Notes under the pieces: model-generated
Seen by the model: the letters and a program-made list of their open reading frames with translations, nothing else
Databases searched by the model: none
What the model was told of the DNA's origin: nothing
Program-made: the position numbers and the translations under genes
IMG/VR virus record: IMGVR_UViG_3300030102_006960
Span: 65,950 to 129,949 of that record
Strand: one strand, 5' to 3'
DNA from: a virus
DNA length: 64,000 bases
In this document: piece after piece, positions 21,719 to 54,445 of the stretch
How positions within the stretch are numbered: position 1 is the stretch's first letter
Layout of the letters: each line of letters starts with the position of its first letter

Positions 21719-21750
21719 TTTGACTTTTAAATATATTTGCCCTATATTTG
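21719..21750 (+). promoter_or_regulatory. Bacteroidota-type promoter of the Ro60-like gene
   Basis: TTTG at 21719-21722 (within TTTGAC) and TATATTTG at 21743-21750 are separated by 20 bases, matching the TTTG / TAnnTTTG promoter of Bacteroidota. A second TATATTTG copy lies at 21732-21739. The start codon used is 40 bases downstream. Confidence 0.75.
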
Positions 21751-21790
21751 TATCACACTTTTAAAGAACAATATAAAAACAACCAAAATT

Positions 21791-23242
21791 ATGGCTAATT
21801 CAATGACTAAATACAGAGAAATGGAGGAAGAAAAAACGCAATTAACCGAAAACGGTATGTCTACAAATAATACTACACTAAATAACTGTGTAGATTTATT
21901 TTTCTCTATTGGGGCTATGAGAGGGAAAAATAAAGTTACCTTAATTGAAAAATTTTCCAAAGCATATAGTGAAAACCCATTAGTTGCAACTCGTATCCTT
22001 TTTTGGGTAAGAGATGTTAGAGAAGGTGCCGGTGAGAGACAAATCTTTAGAGATGTTATTTCTCACTTAGTAAAACTTTCACCAGATGTCGTTAAAAAGA
22101 ATGTTCATCTTATTTCTGAATACGGAAGATGGGATGATGTATTTACATTAATTGGTACTGACTTAGAAGGTATGGTTATAGACTTAATCGTAACTGCCTT
22201 AGGTAACGAAGACGGTTTATGTGCTAAGTGGATGCCTCGTAAAGGTGAAGTATTTAATAAAGTTAGAAGAGCTTTAAAAGTTTCCCCGAAAGAATTAAGA
22301 AAAAGATTAGTAGGTTTGACAGATGTAGTGGAAACTAAGATGTGTTCAAATCGATGGAAAGAAATTGACTACTCTAAAATACCTTCATTGGCATCGGCAA
22401 GATATCAAAAAGCGTTTTGGAGAAGAGATGAAAAGGGTTATAATCAATTTGTAGAAGACCTTAAAGAAGGTAAAACTACAGTTAATAGTGGAGCACTATA
22501 CCCTTACGATATTTTAAAGACTTTGTATACTGGTGTTGATGAAACAGTTTCTCAAAATCAATGGGATAATTTACCTAACTTTATGGAAGGTAATGAGGAT
22601 AGAGTTTTACCAATGGTTGATGTTTCAGGTTCAATGAGTTGTTCCGCAGGTAGTAATGATTCACTTACTTGTATGGATGTAGCAATCTCATTAGGTATCT
22701 ATATTTCAGAAAGGAATGAAGGAGCATTTAAAGATAGTTTTTTAACTTTTTCTTCAACACCGAGTTTACAGTACTTAACTGGTGATTCACTAAAAGGTAA
22801 ATTACAACAGTTAAGAAGTGCACATTGGGGAATGAGTACAAATTTAACGGCAACATTTGATTTATTGTTAAATCAGGCAGTAACTCATAATATTCCTTTA
22901 GGGGAAATGCCGACAAAAATATTAATATTATCAGATATGGAATTCGATGCAGCGACAGGAAATTGTTGGGAAGAATCTGATAGTTGGAATCCTACTGCAA
23001 TGGAGATGATTAAAACAAAATATGAAGAAGCTGGTTATGAAATGCCAACAATAGTATTTTGGAATCTTCATTCCAGAGGTAATGATAATTTTCCTGTTAG
23101 ACAGGATGAGATGAACACCGCTTTAATCTCAGGATTTAGTCCATCAATACTAAAGTCAGTATTGAATGGGGAGAATTTAACTCCTTACTCAGTAATGATG
23201 AAAACTGTTGATAGTACTAGATATGAGAATATAACGGTATAG
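21791..23242 (+). CDS. Ro60-like protein (TROVE domain plus vWA/MIDAS domain)
   Basis: ATG 21791 lies 40 bases after a well-formed promoter; the frame opens earlier but upstream residues are not needed. The 483 residues contain a TROVE-type HEAT-repeat region (NNCVDLFFSIGAMRG, RILFWVRDVREGAGERQIFRD, YGRWDDVFTLI, RYQKAFWRRD). A von Willebrand A domain follows with a complete MIDAS: DVSGSMS near residue 277, Thr in GMSTNLTATFD and Asp in LILSDMEFD. Ro60 proteins are ring-shaped RNA chaperones that bind Y RNAs and misfolded RNAs, and bacterial forms guide exonucleases such as PNPase. A structured non-coding stretch follows immediately, as expected for a Ro60/Y-RNA locus. Confidence 0.87.
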   Translation: MANSMTKYREMEEEKTQLTENGMSTNNTTLNNCVDLFFSIGAMRGKNKVTLIEKFSKAYSENPLVATRILFWVRDVREGAGERQIFRDVISHLVKLSPDVVKKNVHLISEYGRWDDVFTLIGTDLEGMVIDLIVTALGNEDGLCAKWMPRKGEVFNKVRRALKVSPKELRKRLVGLTDVVETKMCSNRWKEIDYSKIPSLASARYQKAFWRRDEKGYNQFVEDLKEGKTTVNSGALYPYDILKTLYTGVDETVSQNQWDNLPNFMEGNEDRVLPMVDVSGSMSCSAGSNDSLTCMDVAISLGIYISERNEGAFKDSFLTFSSTPSLQYLTGDSLKGKLQQLRSAHWGMSTNLTATFDLLLNQAVTHNIPLGEMPTKILILSDMEFDAATGNCWEESDSWNPTAMEMIKTKYEEAGYEMPTIVFWNLHSRGNDNFPVRQDEMNTALISGFSPSILKSVLNGENLTPYSVMMKTVDSTRYENITV

Positions 23243-25262: not shown

Positions 25263-26285
25263 ATGACAAAAGATTATTATAAAGTTTTAGGGGTTGATAA
25301 AAATGTTGATGACTCAACACTCAAAAAAGCTTATAGGAAACTATCTAAAAAGTATCATCCAGACGTAAATAATGAGCCTGCGGCGGAAGAAAAATTTAAA
25401 GAAGTAGCAGAAGCGTATGATGTTTTATCAGATTCTCAAAAAAGACAAAACTATGATACATATGGTACACCTGATGGTAGAGGGGGTAACCCATTTGGTG
25501 GTGGGTTTGATATGGGCGATATCTTTAGTTCTTTTTTCGGTGAAGAGGGAAATCCATTTGGTGGTAGATCTCAAAGACCAAAAAGATTTAAAGGTACAGA
25601 TATTAGAGTTAATATGAAATTATCTTTAGAAGATATCCATAGTGGTATATATAAGAAGATAAAATATAAAAGGAATGATTCATGTAATGATTGTAATTCT
25701 CAAGGAGGAGAAACATCGACATGTAACGCATGTAGAGGTACAGGACAAGTGGTTAGAATTACTAGTACCCCATTTGGAAAAATTCAAAATACGACTATTT
25801 GTCCAAAATGTAATGGTGAGGGTAGTGTTATAGTAAAACCTTGTAAAAAATGTAATGGGTTAGGTGTCAAATTAAAAGAGGAAACCATAGATTTTGAAAT
25901 CCCTAAAGGTGTTATGGATGGTGAATATATTACCATACGTGGCAAAGGCAACTCAATTAAGAGGGGGGTTAGTGGTGATTTAATTATTAATATGGTAGAA
26001 ATACCTCATAATGTTTTTAAAAGAAATAATCAAGATATACACCAAAGAATTAAGTTATCATATAAAGACTTAGTTTTGGGTTGTTCTCCAGAATTAGAAA
26101 CTTTAGACGGTAAAATAAGAATTACCATTAAAGAAGGAACAGATGTTGGGCATATACTTAGAGTACCTAAAAAGGGTTTGGAGAGAGCTGGTAACATAGG
26201 AGATATGATGGTAGAAGTTTGGGTAGACATCCCTAAAGAAATAAGTAAAGAAGATAAAATAATAATTGAGTCTTTAAATATTTGA
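25263..26285 (+). CDS. dnaJ: DnaJ (Hsp40) co-chaperone
   Basis: The 340 residues hold a J domain with HPD in KYHPDVNNEP, a Gly/Phe-rich stretch (GGNPFGGGFDMGD), and a zinc domain. The zinc domain has three clear pairs (CNDCNSQG, CNACRGTG, CPKCNGEG) plus CKKCNGLG. The two C-terminal substrate-binding domains complete it. It is shorter than host DnaJ (about 375-390) but complete in order. It would recruit host DnaK for folding or replication-complex remodelling. It fits with the ClpP, SlyD and tmRNA genes nearby as a protein quality-control set. Confidence 0.93.
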   Translation: MTKDYYKVLGVDKNVDDSTLKKAYRKLSKKYHPDVNNEPAAEEKFKEVAEAYDVLSDSQKRQNYDTYGTPDGRGGNPFGGGFDMGDIFSSFFGEEGNPFGGRSQRPKRFKGTDIRVNMKLSLEDIHSGIYKKIKYKRNDSCNDCNSQGGETSTCNACRGTGQVVRITSTPFGKIQNTTICPKCNGEGSVIVKPCKKCNGLGVKLKEETIDFEIPKGVMDGEYITIRGKGNSIKRGVSGDLIINMVEIPHNVFKRNNQDIHQRIKLSYKDLVLGCSPELETLDGKIRITIKEGTDVGHILRVPKKGLERAGNIGDMMVEVWVDIPKEISKEDKIIIESLNI

Positions 26286-34562: not shown

Positions 34563-34588
34563 CAAAAAACCCTCATTGAGGGTTTTTT
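34563..34588. terminator. Bidirectional terminator
   Basis: AAAAACCCTC pairs with GAGGGTTTTT across a three-base loop, with A and T runs on the outer sides. It serves the convergent genes ending at 34539 (+) and 34588 (-). Confidence 0.9.
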
Positions 34589-35013
34589 TATTTTACACTA
34601 ATAATTTCTAGTTCTAAATCTAAAGTTTTATCTACTAAAGGGTGATTACAATCTACTATAACACTTTCTTTATCTACTTTTTTAATTTCTCCTCTTCGTG
34701 TAGTGTCATCTTTTAATTTTATTAATACATAATCTCCTACTTTACAATCTTCATATAATAATGTTTTAGGGACAGTACCCATTAATTTTTTATTATGTTT
34801 ACCATATGCTAATGATGGAGGAATTGATGTTTTCTTCACAACAATTTCTTTGGGGTCTATTTTTAAGTTGATATCATCTAAGTCTGACAATAATACATTA
34901 ATACCGTCAATATTATCTGGATGATCTGAAACTAAAGTAAAATCTTTTTTTTCTTCTACTAATTCTTCGTTAATATTTATTTTATAATTAACTGTATATT
35001 TTTTCTTTTCCAT
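34588..35013 (-). CDS. SlyD/FKBP-like protein, degenerate paralogue
   Basis: 141 residues aligned by eye with the FKBP-type protein at 35588. Shared elements are PPSLAYGKHNKKLMGTVPKTLL (versus PTEAYGEYLDGLVTVVPKTQM), VGDYVLIK, VIVDCNHPLVDKTLDLELEIISV (versus VKVDANHPLAGKKLMFEVELLEV). The N-terminal FKBP catalytic strand (YTGKFEDGTVFDTS) is replaced by an unrelated acidic segment. It probably keeps the IF/flap fold and chaperone activity but not prolyl isomerase activity; that is inference. It is divergent from the small gene that runs into the tmRNA. Confidence 0.75.
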   Translation of the reverse strand: MEKKKYTVNYKININEELVEEKKDFTLVSDHPDNIDGINVLLSDLDDINLKIDPKEIVVKKTSIPPSLAYGKHNKKLMGTVPKTLLYEDCKVGDYVLIKLKDDTTRRGEIKKVDKESVIVDCNHPLVDKTLDLELEIISVK

Positions 35014-35061
35014 ACTAATAAATATTTGTTTTTATGAATTTTATTTATTATATTTACCATT

Positions 35062-35253
35062 ATGGGAAGAGTTAAACAACTTTACGAAGAAGTGTACGTT
35101 GAAGAAATGGAAAAACATTATCAACAATTATATATGGAAGAAAAACTATATAGTCAACGATATGGGGATGACACGGAATTGATTGACGTAGAGAAGTGTG
35201 AAGATTCAGGTATGGGTGATGACCTTCATCAAAACCTTAGCCGGAAACGCTGA
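35062..35253 (+). CDS. Small MGRVKxLY-type protein overlapping the tmRNA gene
   Basis: 63 residues; the first 34 (MGRVKQLYEEVYVEEMEKHY onward) look like a genuine small acidic phage protein. The leader TATTATATTTACCATT supports the start. From residue 35 the frame runs into the tmRNA acceptor and D-arm region and stops inside the tag-reading segment at 35251-35253. Either the coding region is shortened by insertion of a tmRNA gene, or the frame is a real overlap. The first explanation is more natural. Confidence 0.55.
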   Translation: MGRVKQLYEEVYVEEMEKHYQQLYMEEKLYSQRYGDDTELIDVEKCEDSGMGDDLHQNLSRKR

Positions 35254-35503
35254 GTATGCTATGGCAGCCTAATTAGATTAGATGTTAAGCACATCATGTA
35301 ACTGAGTATACTTGTAGGTTGCTAAGATGTAAAAGGAAGTAGATGGTGATGTTTGGTAATGATAGTGATTTGCCAGTGACGACCTTACAGTTAACGAAAA
35401 CCTATCAATTTTCGGAAGTTTAGAAAAACTTGTCCTAAACCTGTAAAAAGATCTCATATGGATGACGGGCAAGACGGGGGTTCGAATCCCCCCATCTCCA
35501 CCA
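35164..35503 (+). ncRNA. ssrA: tmRNA (transfer-messenger RNA)
   Basis: A complete tmRNA of 340 bases. The acceptor stem pairs GGGGATG (35164-35170) with CATCTCC (35493-35499) and includes the G3-U70 alanine identity pair. A discriminator A and an encoded CCA (35501-35503) follow. The T arm is GGGGG TTCGAAT CCCCC (35476-35492). The tag frame begins at GCC 35240 and reads AGNAEYAMAA before TAA 35270-35272. A tag ending in YAMAA is the kind of signal ClpXP uses. The tmRNA rescues stalled ribosomes with SmpB, which is not encoded in the window. The single-piece form and tag style fit a Bacteroidota source. Confidence 0.95.
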
Positions 35504-35587: not shown

Positions 35588-36013
35588 ATGTCAAAAGTAG
35601 AAACAGGGAAAACAATTAAAGTTAACTATACTGGAAAATTTGAGGATGGGACAGTATTTGATACTTCTTTAGGTGAAGGTAGAGAACCACTAAAAACAAT
35701 ATTAGGACAAGGAAACTTAATTCCTGGTTTTGAAAAGGGTTTATTAGGTATGAATGAGGGTGAAAATAAAACTATTGAGATTGAGCCTACTGAAGCATAT
35801 GGTGAGTATTTAGATGGTTTGGTGACAGTCGTACCAAAAACACAAATGCCTGAAGGAGTTAAGGTAGGTGATGTATTACAGTCTTCTGGTGATAGAGGAA
35901 CTATCAATGTTACTGTTACTGAAATTAATGAAAATGATGTAAAAGTAGACGCAAATCACCCATTGGCTGGTAAAAAATTAATGTTTGAAGTAGAATTATT
36001 AGAGGTAGAGTAA
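35588..36013 (+). CDS. FKBP-type peptidyl-prolyl isomerase, SlyD-like
   Basis: The 141 residues have the FKBP half (VNYTGKFEDGTVFDTSLGEGREPL, GQGNLIPGFEKGLLGM) and an IF/flap insertion domain. The second FKBP strand set follows (DVKVDANHPLAGKKLMFEVELLEV). SlyD-like enzymes isomerise prolyl bonds and act as folding chaperones. The His-rich metal-binding tail of SlyD is missing. It begins 84 bases after the tmRNA, and a degenerate paralogue lies on the other side of it. Confidence 0.9.
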   Translation: MSKVETGKTIKVNYTGKFEDGTVFDTSLGEGREPLKTILGQGNLIPGFEKGLLGMNEGENKTIEIEPTEAYGEYLDGLVTVVPKTQMPEGVKVGDVLQSSGDRGTINVTVTEINENDVKVDANHPLAGKKLMFEVELLEVE

Positions 36014-52241: not shown

Positions 52242-52583
52242 ATGGGTAATAACGGAAATCAAAATGGGTGGAATGAATATTCACGACTTGTCTTAGCAGA
52301 ATTAGAGAAATTGAATAATAAAGTAGATTCACTAACTGAGGAAAATAACGATATTAAACAAGAACTATCTAAATTAGAACAATTTAAAGACGAAATATCT
52401 TCATTAAAAGATTGGAAAGGTAATGTAGATGAAGTATCTTCACCTACACAATTAAAAGAATTACAAAAAGAAGTTAGTGATTTAAAAACATTTAAAACTA
52501 TGTCTACTACTGTATGGGTGGTAGTACAGATTATTTTTGGTATTGTCGCAACTTTATTTGGGCTTTATTTAAAATCTAGTTGA
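52242..52583 (+). CDS. Coiled-coil protein with C-terminal membrane anchor
   Basis: 113 residues with a coiled coil (about 20-90) and a C-terminal transmembrane segment (VWVVVQIIFGIVATLFGLYL). This layout is common in phage small membrane proteins. It follows the PAS gene by two bases and overlaps the convergent HAD-domain gene by 19 bases. Confidence 0.65.
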   Translation: MGNNGNQNGWNEYSRLVLAELEKLNNKVDSLTEENNDIKQELSKLEQFKDEISSLKDWKGNVDEVSSPTQLKELQKEVSDLKTFKTMSTTVWVVVQIIFGIVATLFGLYLKSS

Positions 52584-54445
52584 GGTTTAGTAACTAAGTT
52601 TACTTTTAGATTAACCCCATTTTCTTTACCCCACTCTTCAAACGCAATAGCGTGAGGTTCTCTATCTTCATACATTTCTATTAACTCCGTATTTGGAAAC
52701 CTATTTAATAGACTTACAATAGTATTTAACTTACTATTTAAAGTATCTCCATCATCTTTATAATGGTATTCATCAAAAACAATATCATTACTGTGTAATA
52801 TATCTTCTACTTGATCTTTCTGATTTGGAAGTCTACCAGTTAACATAACCACATAAGTGTTAGGTGTATCACTTTCAATAACATAATCACTTATTGTAGA
52901 TTTAATTGGTTGAATATCGAATACCTCAGTATCTAAAGATTCTCTTTTACTCCACCAACCTCTATGTGGATATGGTGAACCAGTTTTTTCTTCCCATTCT
53001 CTTTTACCTTCTTCTGCGTGTGGTGTGTCCATCAACGTACCATCAAAGTCAAAGATTGCAATCTTGTTAATATCTAAAGGGTCTCCTACTGTTTCCATAA
53101 TTAATCTGAATTTACTTACTGTTACACATTCGTTTAAATCTAATACACTACCTTGTACCCAAGGGGTGAAATCTTCTAACGGAGTTTTATGTTTTTCTCC
53201 GTTATATGTAAAAGTAATCATTTTTTCGTCAAAATCCAAATCTCTATCTAAAAATTCTAATTTTCCGTCACTACTAGTCCATTTTTTCATCCAACTATGA
53301 TGATTAAACCCACTTTTTTTAAGGAATGATTCAAACTCCCTTTTTTGTTTTATTTTTTCTGCGTAATTTTCATCATCCTCTAATTTATGTAATTTTCGCT
53401 CTAGTTCCGCATTTAATACTTCTTTAACATATTTTGCACCTGCTTCATCAATAAAGTCACCACCCCAATATGCATCATCTAAATCACAATTACTACAAGG
53501 GTTTAGTTCTTCTTCTAAATCTTGTAAATCACTAAATGTAAAAATACCATGTTCTTTAATTTTCTCTAATAAATCTTCATATGGAATCTTTATGGTGTAT
53601 GGTCCATAAGAAAATTGACTGATATAAGGAACGTAAGTAATTTCATCTTCATAGATTTCTTTTACTTGTTCTGTTCTAAATCTACCAGTTTCACCATTTA
53701 ATGCCCAAACATATTCATTTACTACATCGTCTTTATCATCTTTAGTAAGAAAGTCATCTAAATATTCGTATAGTCCACCATCGTTGTCCATACCACCATA
53801 TTTAGGATCATCAACATAAACACCTACTATATCACCTATCTTTTTTATAATATCTAATGTCTTATCATTATACATTACATAGTTGAATTCTTCATGATCA
53901 TAATCTTCTGAACCTGCTCCGTCATCACCAATTCTCCACGCCTGCTCTCCAACACCAGATATAAATTGTTCAAAGTCGTCACTATCACCCGCAATTTCTA
54001 ATCCATCTCTTTCAAAATTAACACAAGGTGTTTTTGGATATCCGTTAGAATTACAATAATAAAAATTGTCACCTAATAAAGTCTTAACTAATTTATTGTG
54101 TTCATCACTAGGATAATAAACTTCTAATACTTCATCTTCATCACCATCTTTTTCTTTAAGTCTCTCAACAAATTTATATAATGCATCTCCTCTATTAACA
54201 TTTTCAATAGTTTCCCATGGAATTCTATATTTATTATCCCCAAACTCATCATTTCCAACCTTAACTGCGGATTTGGTATCTTTATTTAAAACCCATAATG
54301 CGTACCATTGTTTAGCTTCTTCATTGGTAAAGGCTAATGTAGTTTTTAACCACTTTATCACCTTTGCTTTACTAGGGTAAGTACCAACAAACTCTTTATT
54401 GATAAAATCTATTATTTTTATTTCTAATTTAGAAAATTTGTCCAT
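52565..54445 (-). CDS. Shared-domain protein fused to a HAD RNA-repair-like domain
   Basis: 626 residues. The N-terminal 55 residues (LEIKIIDFINKEFVGTYPS, then VIKWLKTTLAFTNEEAKQWYALWVL) match the family domain of the neighbouring cluster, without a leader peptide. The middle is acidic and unrecognised. The C-terminal 160 residues are a HAD fold: FDFDGTL with Asp466 and Asp468, GWWSKRESLD, MLTGR, and YEDREPHAIAF. The GWW...SL and DR..H features match the HAD domain of Swiss Army Knife RNA-repair proteins. It probably dephosphorylates a nucleic-acid end or small metabolite. The only minus-strand member of the family. Confidence 0.75.
   Translation of the reverse strand: MDKFSKLEIKIIDFINKEFVGTYPSKAKVIKWLKTTLAFTNEEAKQWYALWVLNKDTKSAVKVGNDEFGDNKYRIPWETIENVNRGDALYKFVERLKEKDGDEDEVLEVYYPSDEHNKLVKTLLGDNFYYCNSNGYPKTPCVNFERDGLEIAGDSDDFEQFISGVGEQAWRIGDDGAGSEDYDHEEFNYVMYNDKTLDIIKKIGDIVGVYVDDPKYGGMDNDGGLYEYLDDFLTKDDKDDVVNEYVWALNGETGRFRTEQVKEIYEDEITYVPYISQFSYGPYTIKIPYEDLLEKIKEHGIFTFSDLQDLEEELNPCSNCDLDDAYWGGDFIDEAGAKYVKEVLNAELERKLHKLEDDENYAEKIKQKREFESFLKKSGFNHHSWMKKWTSSDGKLEFLDRDLDFDEKMITFTYNGEKHKTPLEDFTPWVQGSVLDLNECVTVSKFRLIMETVGDPLDINKIAIFDFDGTLMDTPHAEEGKREWEEKTGSPYPHRGWWSKRESLDTEVFDIQPIKSTISDYVIESDTPNTYVVMLTGRLPNQKDQVEDILHSNDIVFDEYHYKDDGDTLNSKLNTIVSLLNRFPNTELIEMYEDREPHAIAFEEWGKENGVNLKVNLVTKPQLDFK

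What the first reader, a model, noticed from the sequence alone, without database searches (positions are those of the whole stretch)
35164..35503. Complete phage tmRNA with a legible tag AGNAEYAMAA
Acceptor stem with G3-U70, T arm, encoded CCA and a tag frame are all readable. Phage tmRNAs are known but rare. This one could replace host tmRNA late in infection, or give a phage-specific tag.
Basis: seen in the sequence. Interest (0 to 1): 0.75.

Follow-up and report, generated by a model that had tools for sequence, protein, structure and literature searches.

The report
Phage tmRNA with stop-less leader gene
A phage carries a complete ribosome-rescue RNA (tmRNA), which is a known kind of phage gene, but in front of it sits a conserved tiny gene with no stop signal before the tmRNA begins, so cutting the tmRNA out of its transcript would leave exactly the kind of broken message that tmRNA repairs.

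Summary
Window 35164-35503(+) is a full-length one-piece tmRNA (ARAGORN; Rfam RF00023 81.4 bits, cut-off 47) with G3-U70, T arm and encoded CCA. Across seven phages its helices, including a pseudoknot, covary. The window is 64 kb of a 145.8-kb tailed-phage contig without smpB, so host SmpB would be needed. Phage tmRNAs are published: the RNA itself is a new member of a known kind.

Two things look new. (1) Directly upstream, 35062-35163, a 34-codon ORF runs into the tmRNA with no stop. It is under coding constraint (pN/pS 0.12-0.18), its N-terminus recurs before tmRNAs of divergent phages, its continuation inside the tmRNA is not conserved, and a promoter-like element abuts it. RNase P cutting at the tmRNA 5' end would turn it into a non-stop mRNA, a substrate for this tmRNA. 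That step is inferred. (2) Other phage tmRNAs encode 21-31-residue tags, mostly without the usual ALAA end, including a recurrent 21-mer.

Host is unproven: Bacteroidota-type promoters precede relatives' tmRNAs, but the nearest named contigs lie in a Prochlorococcus single-cell genome.

The parts
35164..35503 (+). one-piece tmRNA (ssrA)
   Evidence: ARAGORN; Rfam RF00023 81.4 bits; covariation
35243..35272 (+). tag reading frame GNAEYAMAA + TAA; resume codon GGA preceded by UAGCC
   Evidence: only synonymous tag changes in G079/G081; same tag in all viral contigs found by the upstream PK1 sequence alone
35164..35170 (+). acceptor stem 5' strand (pairs with 35493-35499; G3-U70; two pairs with double changes)
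35476..35492 (+). T stem-loop GGGGG-UUCGAAU-CCCCC
35501..35503 (+). encoded CCA (not encoded in all relatives)
35214..35232 (+). pseudoknot PK1 region GGGUGAUGACCUUCAUCAA
   Evidence: stem UGAUG/CAUCA nearly invariant in 7 phages, so not testable by covariation
35292..35341 (+). pseudoknot PK2 (two nested helices crossed by a third)
   Evidence: compensatory changes in all three helices
35365..35388 (+). PK3 crossing helix GUGA/UUAC
   Evidence: 2 of 4 pairs with double changes
35414..35435 (+). PK4-region hairpin
   Evidence: weak, no compensatory change, broken in G079
35062..35163 (+). stop-less leader ORF, 34 codons MGRVKQLYEEVYVEEMEKHYQQLYMEEKLYSQRY, abutting tmRNA G1 in frame
35164..35253 (+). 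in-frame continuation of the leader ORF inside the tmRNA up to TGA (29 codons and stop); not conserved as protein
35026..35056 (+). promoter-like TTG-N20-TATATTTA just before the leader ATG; kept in G003 although the spacer diverged
   Evidence: sequence; some relatives carry perfect TTG-N17/22-TAnnTTTG
34588..35013 (-). divergent gene of unknown function, bounds the intergenic region
   Evidence: no Pfam match
35588..36013 (+). FKBP-type peptidyl-prolyl isomerase downstream
   Evidence: PF00254 78 bits; syntenic in close relatives

Best explanation
A functional phage-encoded one-piece tmRNA that works with the host's SmpB, alanyl-tRNA synthetase and proteases: it enters ribosomes stalled on broken messages and adds Ala-GNAEYAMAA, a degradation-type tag, which keeps ribosomes usable during infection. 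It is most likely transcribed from its own promoter just upstream as a precursor that begins with a translated 34-codon ORF lacking a stop. RNase P cleavage at the tmRNA 5' end would release that ORF as a non-stop mRNA whose ribosomes are rescued and tagged by this tmRNA, giving a built-in link between translation, tmRNA maturation and tmRNA use. Shown here: tmRNA anatomy, covariation, tag frame, conservation, coding constraint on the leader, absence of a stop before the tmRNA. Inferred: use of host SmpB, transcription start, RNase P cutting, leader translation, self-tagging and its regulatory meaning. My estimates: functional tmRNA 0.95; leader really translated 0.75; non-stop link matters biologically 0.35.
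For: tmRNA; 97.6% identity over 327 nt in the single-cell-genome phage against 75-79% in flanking DNA; identical tag in divergent phages, with synonymous changes only, also when relatives were found by a tag-independent pattern. Leader: no stop before the tmRNA in WIN, G001, G002, G003, G018, G021, G020, G022 and L304, always in the same frame; pN/pS 0.12 (WIN/G002, Fisher p 0.0012), 0.18 (WIN/G003), 0.40 (G021/L304, p 0.015); chance of being open 3% for the window and below 1% for the G018/G020/G021 leaders; its N-terminus ranks 1st-2nd among 183-234 ATG ORFs per relative locus and 1st-2nd of 1,437 in its own genome; the motif regex finds no other convincing ORF in the sequences scanned. The continuation inside the tmRNA shows 2 amino-acid changes and 1 frameshift and no silent change in G002/G003, so selection on this frame seems to stop at the tmRNA boundary. 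Bacteroidota-type promoters lie upstream of tmRNA in 6 of 18 phages against 0.45 expected, and in G018/G021 they sit just before the leader ATG (87).
Against: No expression, processing or translation data. The contig may be incomplete, so a missed smpB cannot be excluded. Leader evidence rests on a few related sequences and short stretches; BLASTP sees no similarity between leaders of the two groups. ATG ORFs open into the tmRNA occur, apparently by chance, in 3 of 30 cyanobacterial loci, and a similar open stretch in L283 is out of frame in its relative L288. More distant phages with the same tag (G079-G081) have no such leader.
Confidence: 0.85

Rival explanations
1. The leader is an ordinary small phage gene whose 3' end overlaps the tmRNA: the real product is the 63-residue protein ending at TGA 35251-35253, made from unprocessed transcripts, with no non-stop biology.
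For: The frame does end in a stop inside the tmRNA in every case; overlaps are common in compact phage genomes.
Against: The part inside the tmRNA differs completely between phage groups and in length (29, 14, 21 codons), and within the window group it shows amino-acid changes and a frameshift in G002 while the upstream part is constrained.
Confidence: 0.3
2. The upstream ORF is not translated: the DNA is conserved for promoter and 5'-processing signals, and openness is chance.
For: A promoter-like element and, in relatives, a boxA-like GTTCTTTGAAA ending just before the tmRNA overlap this region; chance openness happens.
Against: Silent changes exceed amino-acid changes per site (pN/pS 0.12-0.18), the length differences are multiples of three, and the N-terminal motif recurs in divergent phages.
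Confidence: 0.2
3. The phage tmRNA's main purpose is a phage-specific tag that changes the fate of tagged proteins (no degradation, or degradation by another protease).
For: Other phage tmRNAs carry 21-31-residue tags ending VTVA, VAVA, VVFA or ELV, with silent changes exceeding amino-acid changes per site in most close pairs.
Against: The window's own tag is a short YAMAA tag of the usual degradation type.
Confidence: 0.15
4. A tmRNA remnant picked up from a host chromosome and not functional.
For: Host ssrA genes are frequent integration sites (PMC11915505).
Against: Full-length, covarying, CCA-ending, conserved tag and position in several phages; more conserved than flanking genes.
Confidence: 0.03

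Closest known systems
Phage one-piece tmRNAs (mycobacteriophages Bxz1, Wildcat and others, Bacillus phage G; PMC4131195; 402 of 18,146 phage genomes, PMC9004378; huge phages with tmRNA and SmpB, PMC7162821)
   Same: complete tmRNA gene in a tailed-phage genome, here as often without smpB
   Different: no stop-less upstream ORF is described in the passages read; the tag GNAEYAMAA and the sequence are new
Mycobacteriophage Wildcat tmRNA (PMC7474061: most highly expressed lytic gene)
   Same: phage tmRNA; shows that such genes can be massively expressed
   Different: different phage group and host; used here only as precedent
Bacteroidota tmRNAs (tags such as GENNYALAA, GETNYALAA; from memory)
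   Same: Gly resume codon, 9-residue tag ending in AA
ArfA-type stop-less genes controlled by tmRNA tagging (established knowledge)
   Same: an ORF that becomes a non-stop mRNA by RNA cleavage and whose product would be tagged
   Different: here the non-stop message would be made by maturation of the tmRNA itself; no similarity to ArfA was shown

Membership tests
tmRNA (RF00023) | covariance score above the curated cut-off over the full model | tested here: met
   81.4 bits vs 47, model 1-374
tmRNA (RF00023) | tRNA-like domain with G3-U70, T arm and no anticodon arm | tested here: met
tmRNA (RF00023) | internal tag frame with resume codon and stop | tested here: met
   GNAEYAMAA*
tmRNA (RF00023) | pseudoknots | tested here: met
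   PK2 with compensatory changes; PK1, PK3 consistent; PK4 weak
tmRNA (RF00023) | alanine charging, SmpB binding, tagging activity | not testable with these tools
   needs biochemistry
tmRNA-SmpB two-gene phage system | smpB in the same genome | tested here: not met
   PF01668: none in the 145.8-kb contig; the contig may be incomplete
stop-less ORF rescued by tmRNA (ArfA-like logic) | open reading frame without a stop before the RNA's processed end | tested here: met
   35062-35163; assumes RNase P cuts at 35164
stop-less ORF rescued by tmRNA (ArfA-like logic) | product is tagged by tmRNA | not testable with these tools
   needs mass spectrometry
ArfA family | sequence similarity to ArfA | not tested
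   only PHROGs was scanned for the leader: no family for the window's leader

The most novel reading that the evidence does not exclude
Phage tmRNA genes of two groups carry their own built-in non-stop message: maturation of each tmRNA releases a conserved stop-less leader mRNA that traps ribosomes and is tagged by the same tmRNA, forming a self-contained sensor or feedback loop between ribosome supply and tmRNA production.
Probability: 0.33. Interest if true: 0.8.

Novelty: new variant of a known kind. Interest (0 to 1): 0.55.

Why it matters
Why phages carry tmRNAs is open. A conserved stop-less ORF fused to the tmRNA gives a concrete, testable clue: it would couple tmRNA maturation to translation and give every infected cell a defined tmRNA substrate. 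The recurring 21-31-residue tags in related phages suggest that phages evolve tags of their own, which can be tested with reporters.

Tried and rejected
The tRNA-like match at 63 kb of the contig is an ordinary tRNA-Arg, not a second tmRNA. psbA was sought as a cyanophage marker and not found in any of 23 records. The Bacteroidota promoter motif is not clearly enriched over the whole window, only upstream of relatives' tmRNAs. A similar stop-less stretch in L283 was rejected because its relative L288 has it in another frame. Wider viral scans for leader plus tmRNA returned mainly chance hits plus the known group. A search of papers for the tag strings gave only noise.

Full report
What was checked. 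ARAGORN finds one RNA gene in the window, a tmRNA at 35164-35503(+) with tag GNAEYAMAA. Rfam's only match in the window is RF00023 at the same coordinates, full length, 81.4 bits against a cut-off of 47. The window is 65950-129949 of a 145,802-base IMG/VR virus record that encodes a tape measure protein, DnaB-like helicase, primase, exonuclease and ribonucleotide reductase, so it is a tailed phage.

Structure and tag. Seven phage tmRNAs with the same tag, ranging from near-identical to about 74% alike over matched stretches, were aligned. A structure with pseudoknots, written by hand from helices found in that alignment, gives 96.7% paired cells, against 40-51% with partners slid by one to three columns, and 15 of 53 pairs have changes on both sides. 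The acceptor stem (with invariant G3-U70), T stem and PK2, including its crossing helix, carry compensatory changes. PK1 is nearly invariant, PK3 partly supported, PK4 weak. Because the helices were picked from this alignment, the absolute figures lean towards the structure. The resume codon is GGA: the preceding UAGCC resembles the UAGUC of E. coli (from memory), and the triplet before it is Ala in most relatives but Ser in G079. All differences within the tag among G079, G081 and the window are silent, though those two were found through the tag; a scan with the upstream PK1 sequence alone, which ignores the tag, again returned only GNAEYAMAA phages.

Conservation. In a phage contig of the Prochlorococcus single-cell genome AG-409-L21, the tmRNA (L119, cut at its first bases by the contig end) is 97.6% identical over 327 nt, while flanking DNA of this phage is about 75-79% identical. 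IMG/VR record G004 is 100% identical over 2 kb to another contig of that same cell.

Host. The single cell also has a normal cyanobacterial permuted tmRNA with tag ANKIVSFSRQTAPVAA, so if the phage infects Prochlorococcus its tmRNA is not copied from that host. The data paper warns that such assemblies may hold infected or co-sorted material (PMC6122165). Against a cyanobacterial host: no psbA, and a Gly-starting short tag unlike 30 cyanobacterial tags. For Bacteroidota: upstream of related phage tmRNAs the promoter TTG-N17-22-TAnnTTTG, which I know as the Bacteroidota type, occurs in 6 of 18 loci against 0.45 expected, and only 1 of 79 window genes has a Shine-Dalgarno-like motif. I lean to Bacteroidota, about 65%, but this is open.

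SmpB. PF01668 is absent from this contig and from 18 of 19 relatives searched; relative G029 has a complete smpB (148 bits; NCBIfam equivalog), and 33 IMG/VR contigs encode relatives of it; of those searched, two (G029 and G051) also hold a standard tmRNA. The window phage would use host SmpB (inferred).

The stop-less leader. Immediately upstream lies ATG 35062 followed by 34 codons that reach the tmRNA's first base without a stop and in frame. The same holds in G001-G003, in the divergent G018/G021 and G020/G022, and in L304. Evidence that it is coding: silent changes per site exceed amino-acid changes per site (pN/pS 0.12 for WIN/G002, Fisher p 0.0012; 0.18 for WIN/G003; 0.40 for G021/L304, p 0.015); the length difference between G018 and G021 is three bases; the N-terminus M-x3-K-[QK]-[LI]-[YF]-E ranks first or second among all ATG ORFs in each comparison and was found nowhere else convincing in the sequences scanned. 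G020/G022 differ too little to be informative (ratio 0.54). The reading frame inside the tmRNA is not conserved between groups, and within the window group it shows two amino-acid changes and one frameshift with no silent change. The chance of an open stretch of this length is 3% for the window and below 1% for the others; 3 of 30 cyanobacterial loci have an unrelated open ORF there.

Mechanism. tmRNA 5' ends are made by RNase P (PMC3985003, abstract). Cutting at 35164 would leave the leader as a message that ends in a sense codon. Ribosomes on it would stall with an empty A site, the substrate of tmRNA, and the product would be leader-A-GNAEYAMAA. Possible uses: feedback on tmRNA level; ribosome traffic that delays folding and cleavage, so that maturation reports ribosome supply; or a deliberately short-lived peptide. 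The promoter-like TTG-N20-TATATTTA ends five bases before the ATG, so the leader would start almost at the 5' end of the transcript. None of these steps was shown.

Wider survey. Thirteen of 50 relatives carry a standard tmRNA over the cut-off; tags outside the window's group are 21-31 residues long. A scan with the boxA-like sequence GTTCTTTGAAA placed before GGGGNTG returned 31 viral stretches. Of 17 of these scanned with Rfam, 13 hold a tmRNA and two more (L287, L303) a group I intron behind a tmRNA-like 5' end and tag. Fourteen loci share a 21-residue tag type, with silent changes exceeding amino-acid changes per site in the close pairs (pooled ratio over all pairs 0.66). Long tags also occur in cyanobacteria (15-24 residues), so length alone is not new.

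Literature. Phage tmRNAs are established (PMC4131195, PMC9004378, PMC7162821, PMC7474061, PMC11915505). The searches made and the passages read turned up no stop-less ORF upstream of a tmRNA, but most subscription papers were not searchable.

Noticed in passing
L283, L285, L287, L288, L290, L291, L293, L296, L297, L301, L305: Recurrent 21-residue phage tmRNA tag family, e.g. GETFAKLQAVGLLRTEEVTVA and GNVLNNMAACGLFREEASVVA, ending in VA rather than ALAA.
   Followed up: partly
L088-L100 (relatives G006-G031): Other long tags of 21-31 residues, e.g. ANAYNTEDMMSIPTSITRSAVVEEIELMELV and GNDTNMGLALNENILLNGTVGTIAKEEVVFA.
   Followed up: partly
L118:692-1111(-) and L127-L159: Complete phage-encoded SmpB; 33 IMG/VR contigs encode relatives, two of them also with a standard tmRNA.
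   Followed up: partly
14 bases upstream of tmRNA in G018, G020, G021, G022, G031, G080 and others: boxA-like GTTCTTTGA(AAA) at a fixed place before the tmRNA 5' end (inside the tmRNA at about +29 to +32 in G024, G025, G029, G051); absent from the window. Possibly rRNA-type antitermination.
   Followed up: partly
L287:602-818 and L303:7242-7458: Group I intron about 380 bases after a tmRNA-like 5' end with tag GNTFEKLQAVGLLTTEAVTVA: probably an intron-bearing phage tmRNA.
   Followed up: no
window 21737-23242: DUF2828/DUF7788 protein of the phage 'RNA-binding protein' family phrog_850, widespread in large phages; possibly TROVE/Ro60-like (from memory).
   Followed up: partly
window 25263-26285: Phage-encoded DnaJ-type chaperone; with the FKBP isomerase and tmRNA the phage carries several protein-quality genes.
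   Followed up: no
window 52565-54445(-): Protein with a HAD domain of 'Swiss Army Knife' RNA repair proteins.
   Followed up: no
L064, L073: Phages with permuted two-piece tmRNAs (tags ANDERFALAA, ANDNNAYGAYALAA); L064 also has many tRNAs.
   Followed up: no
L119:328-4005: About 3.7 kb extra DNA between tmRNA and the FKBP gene compared with the window.
   Followed up: no
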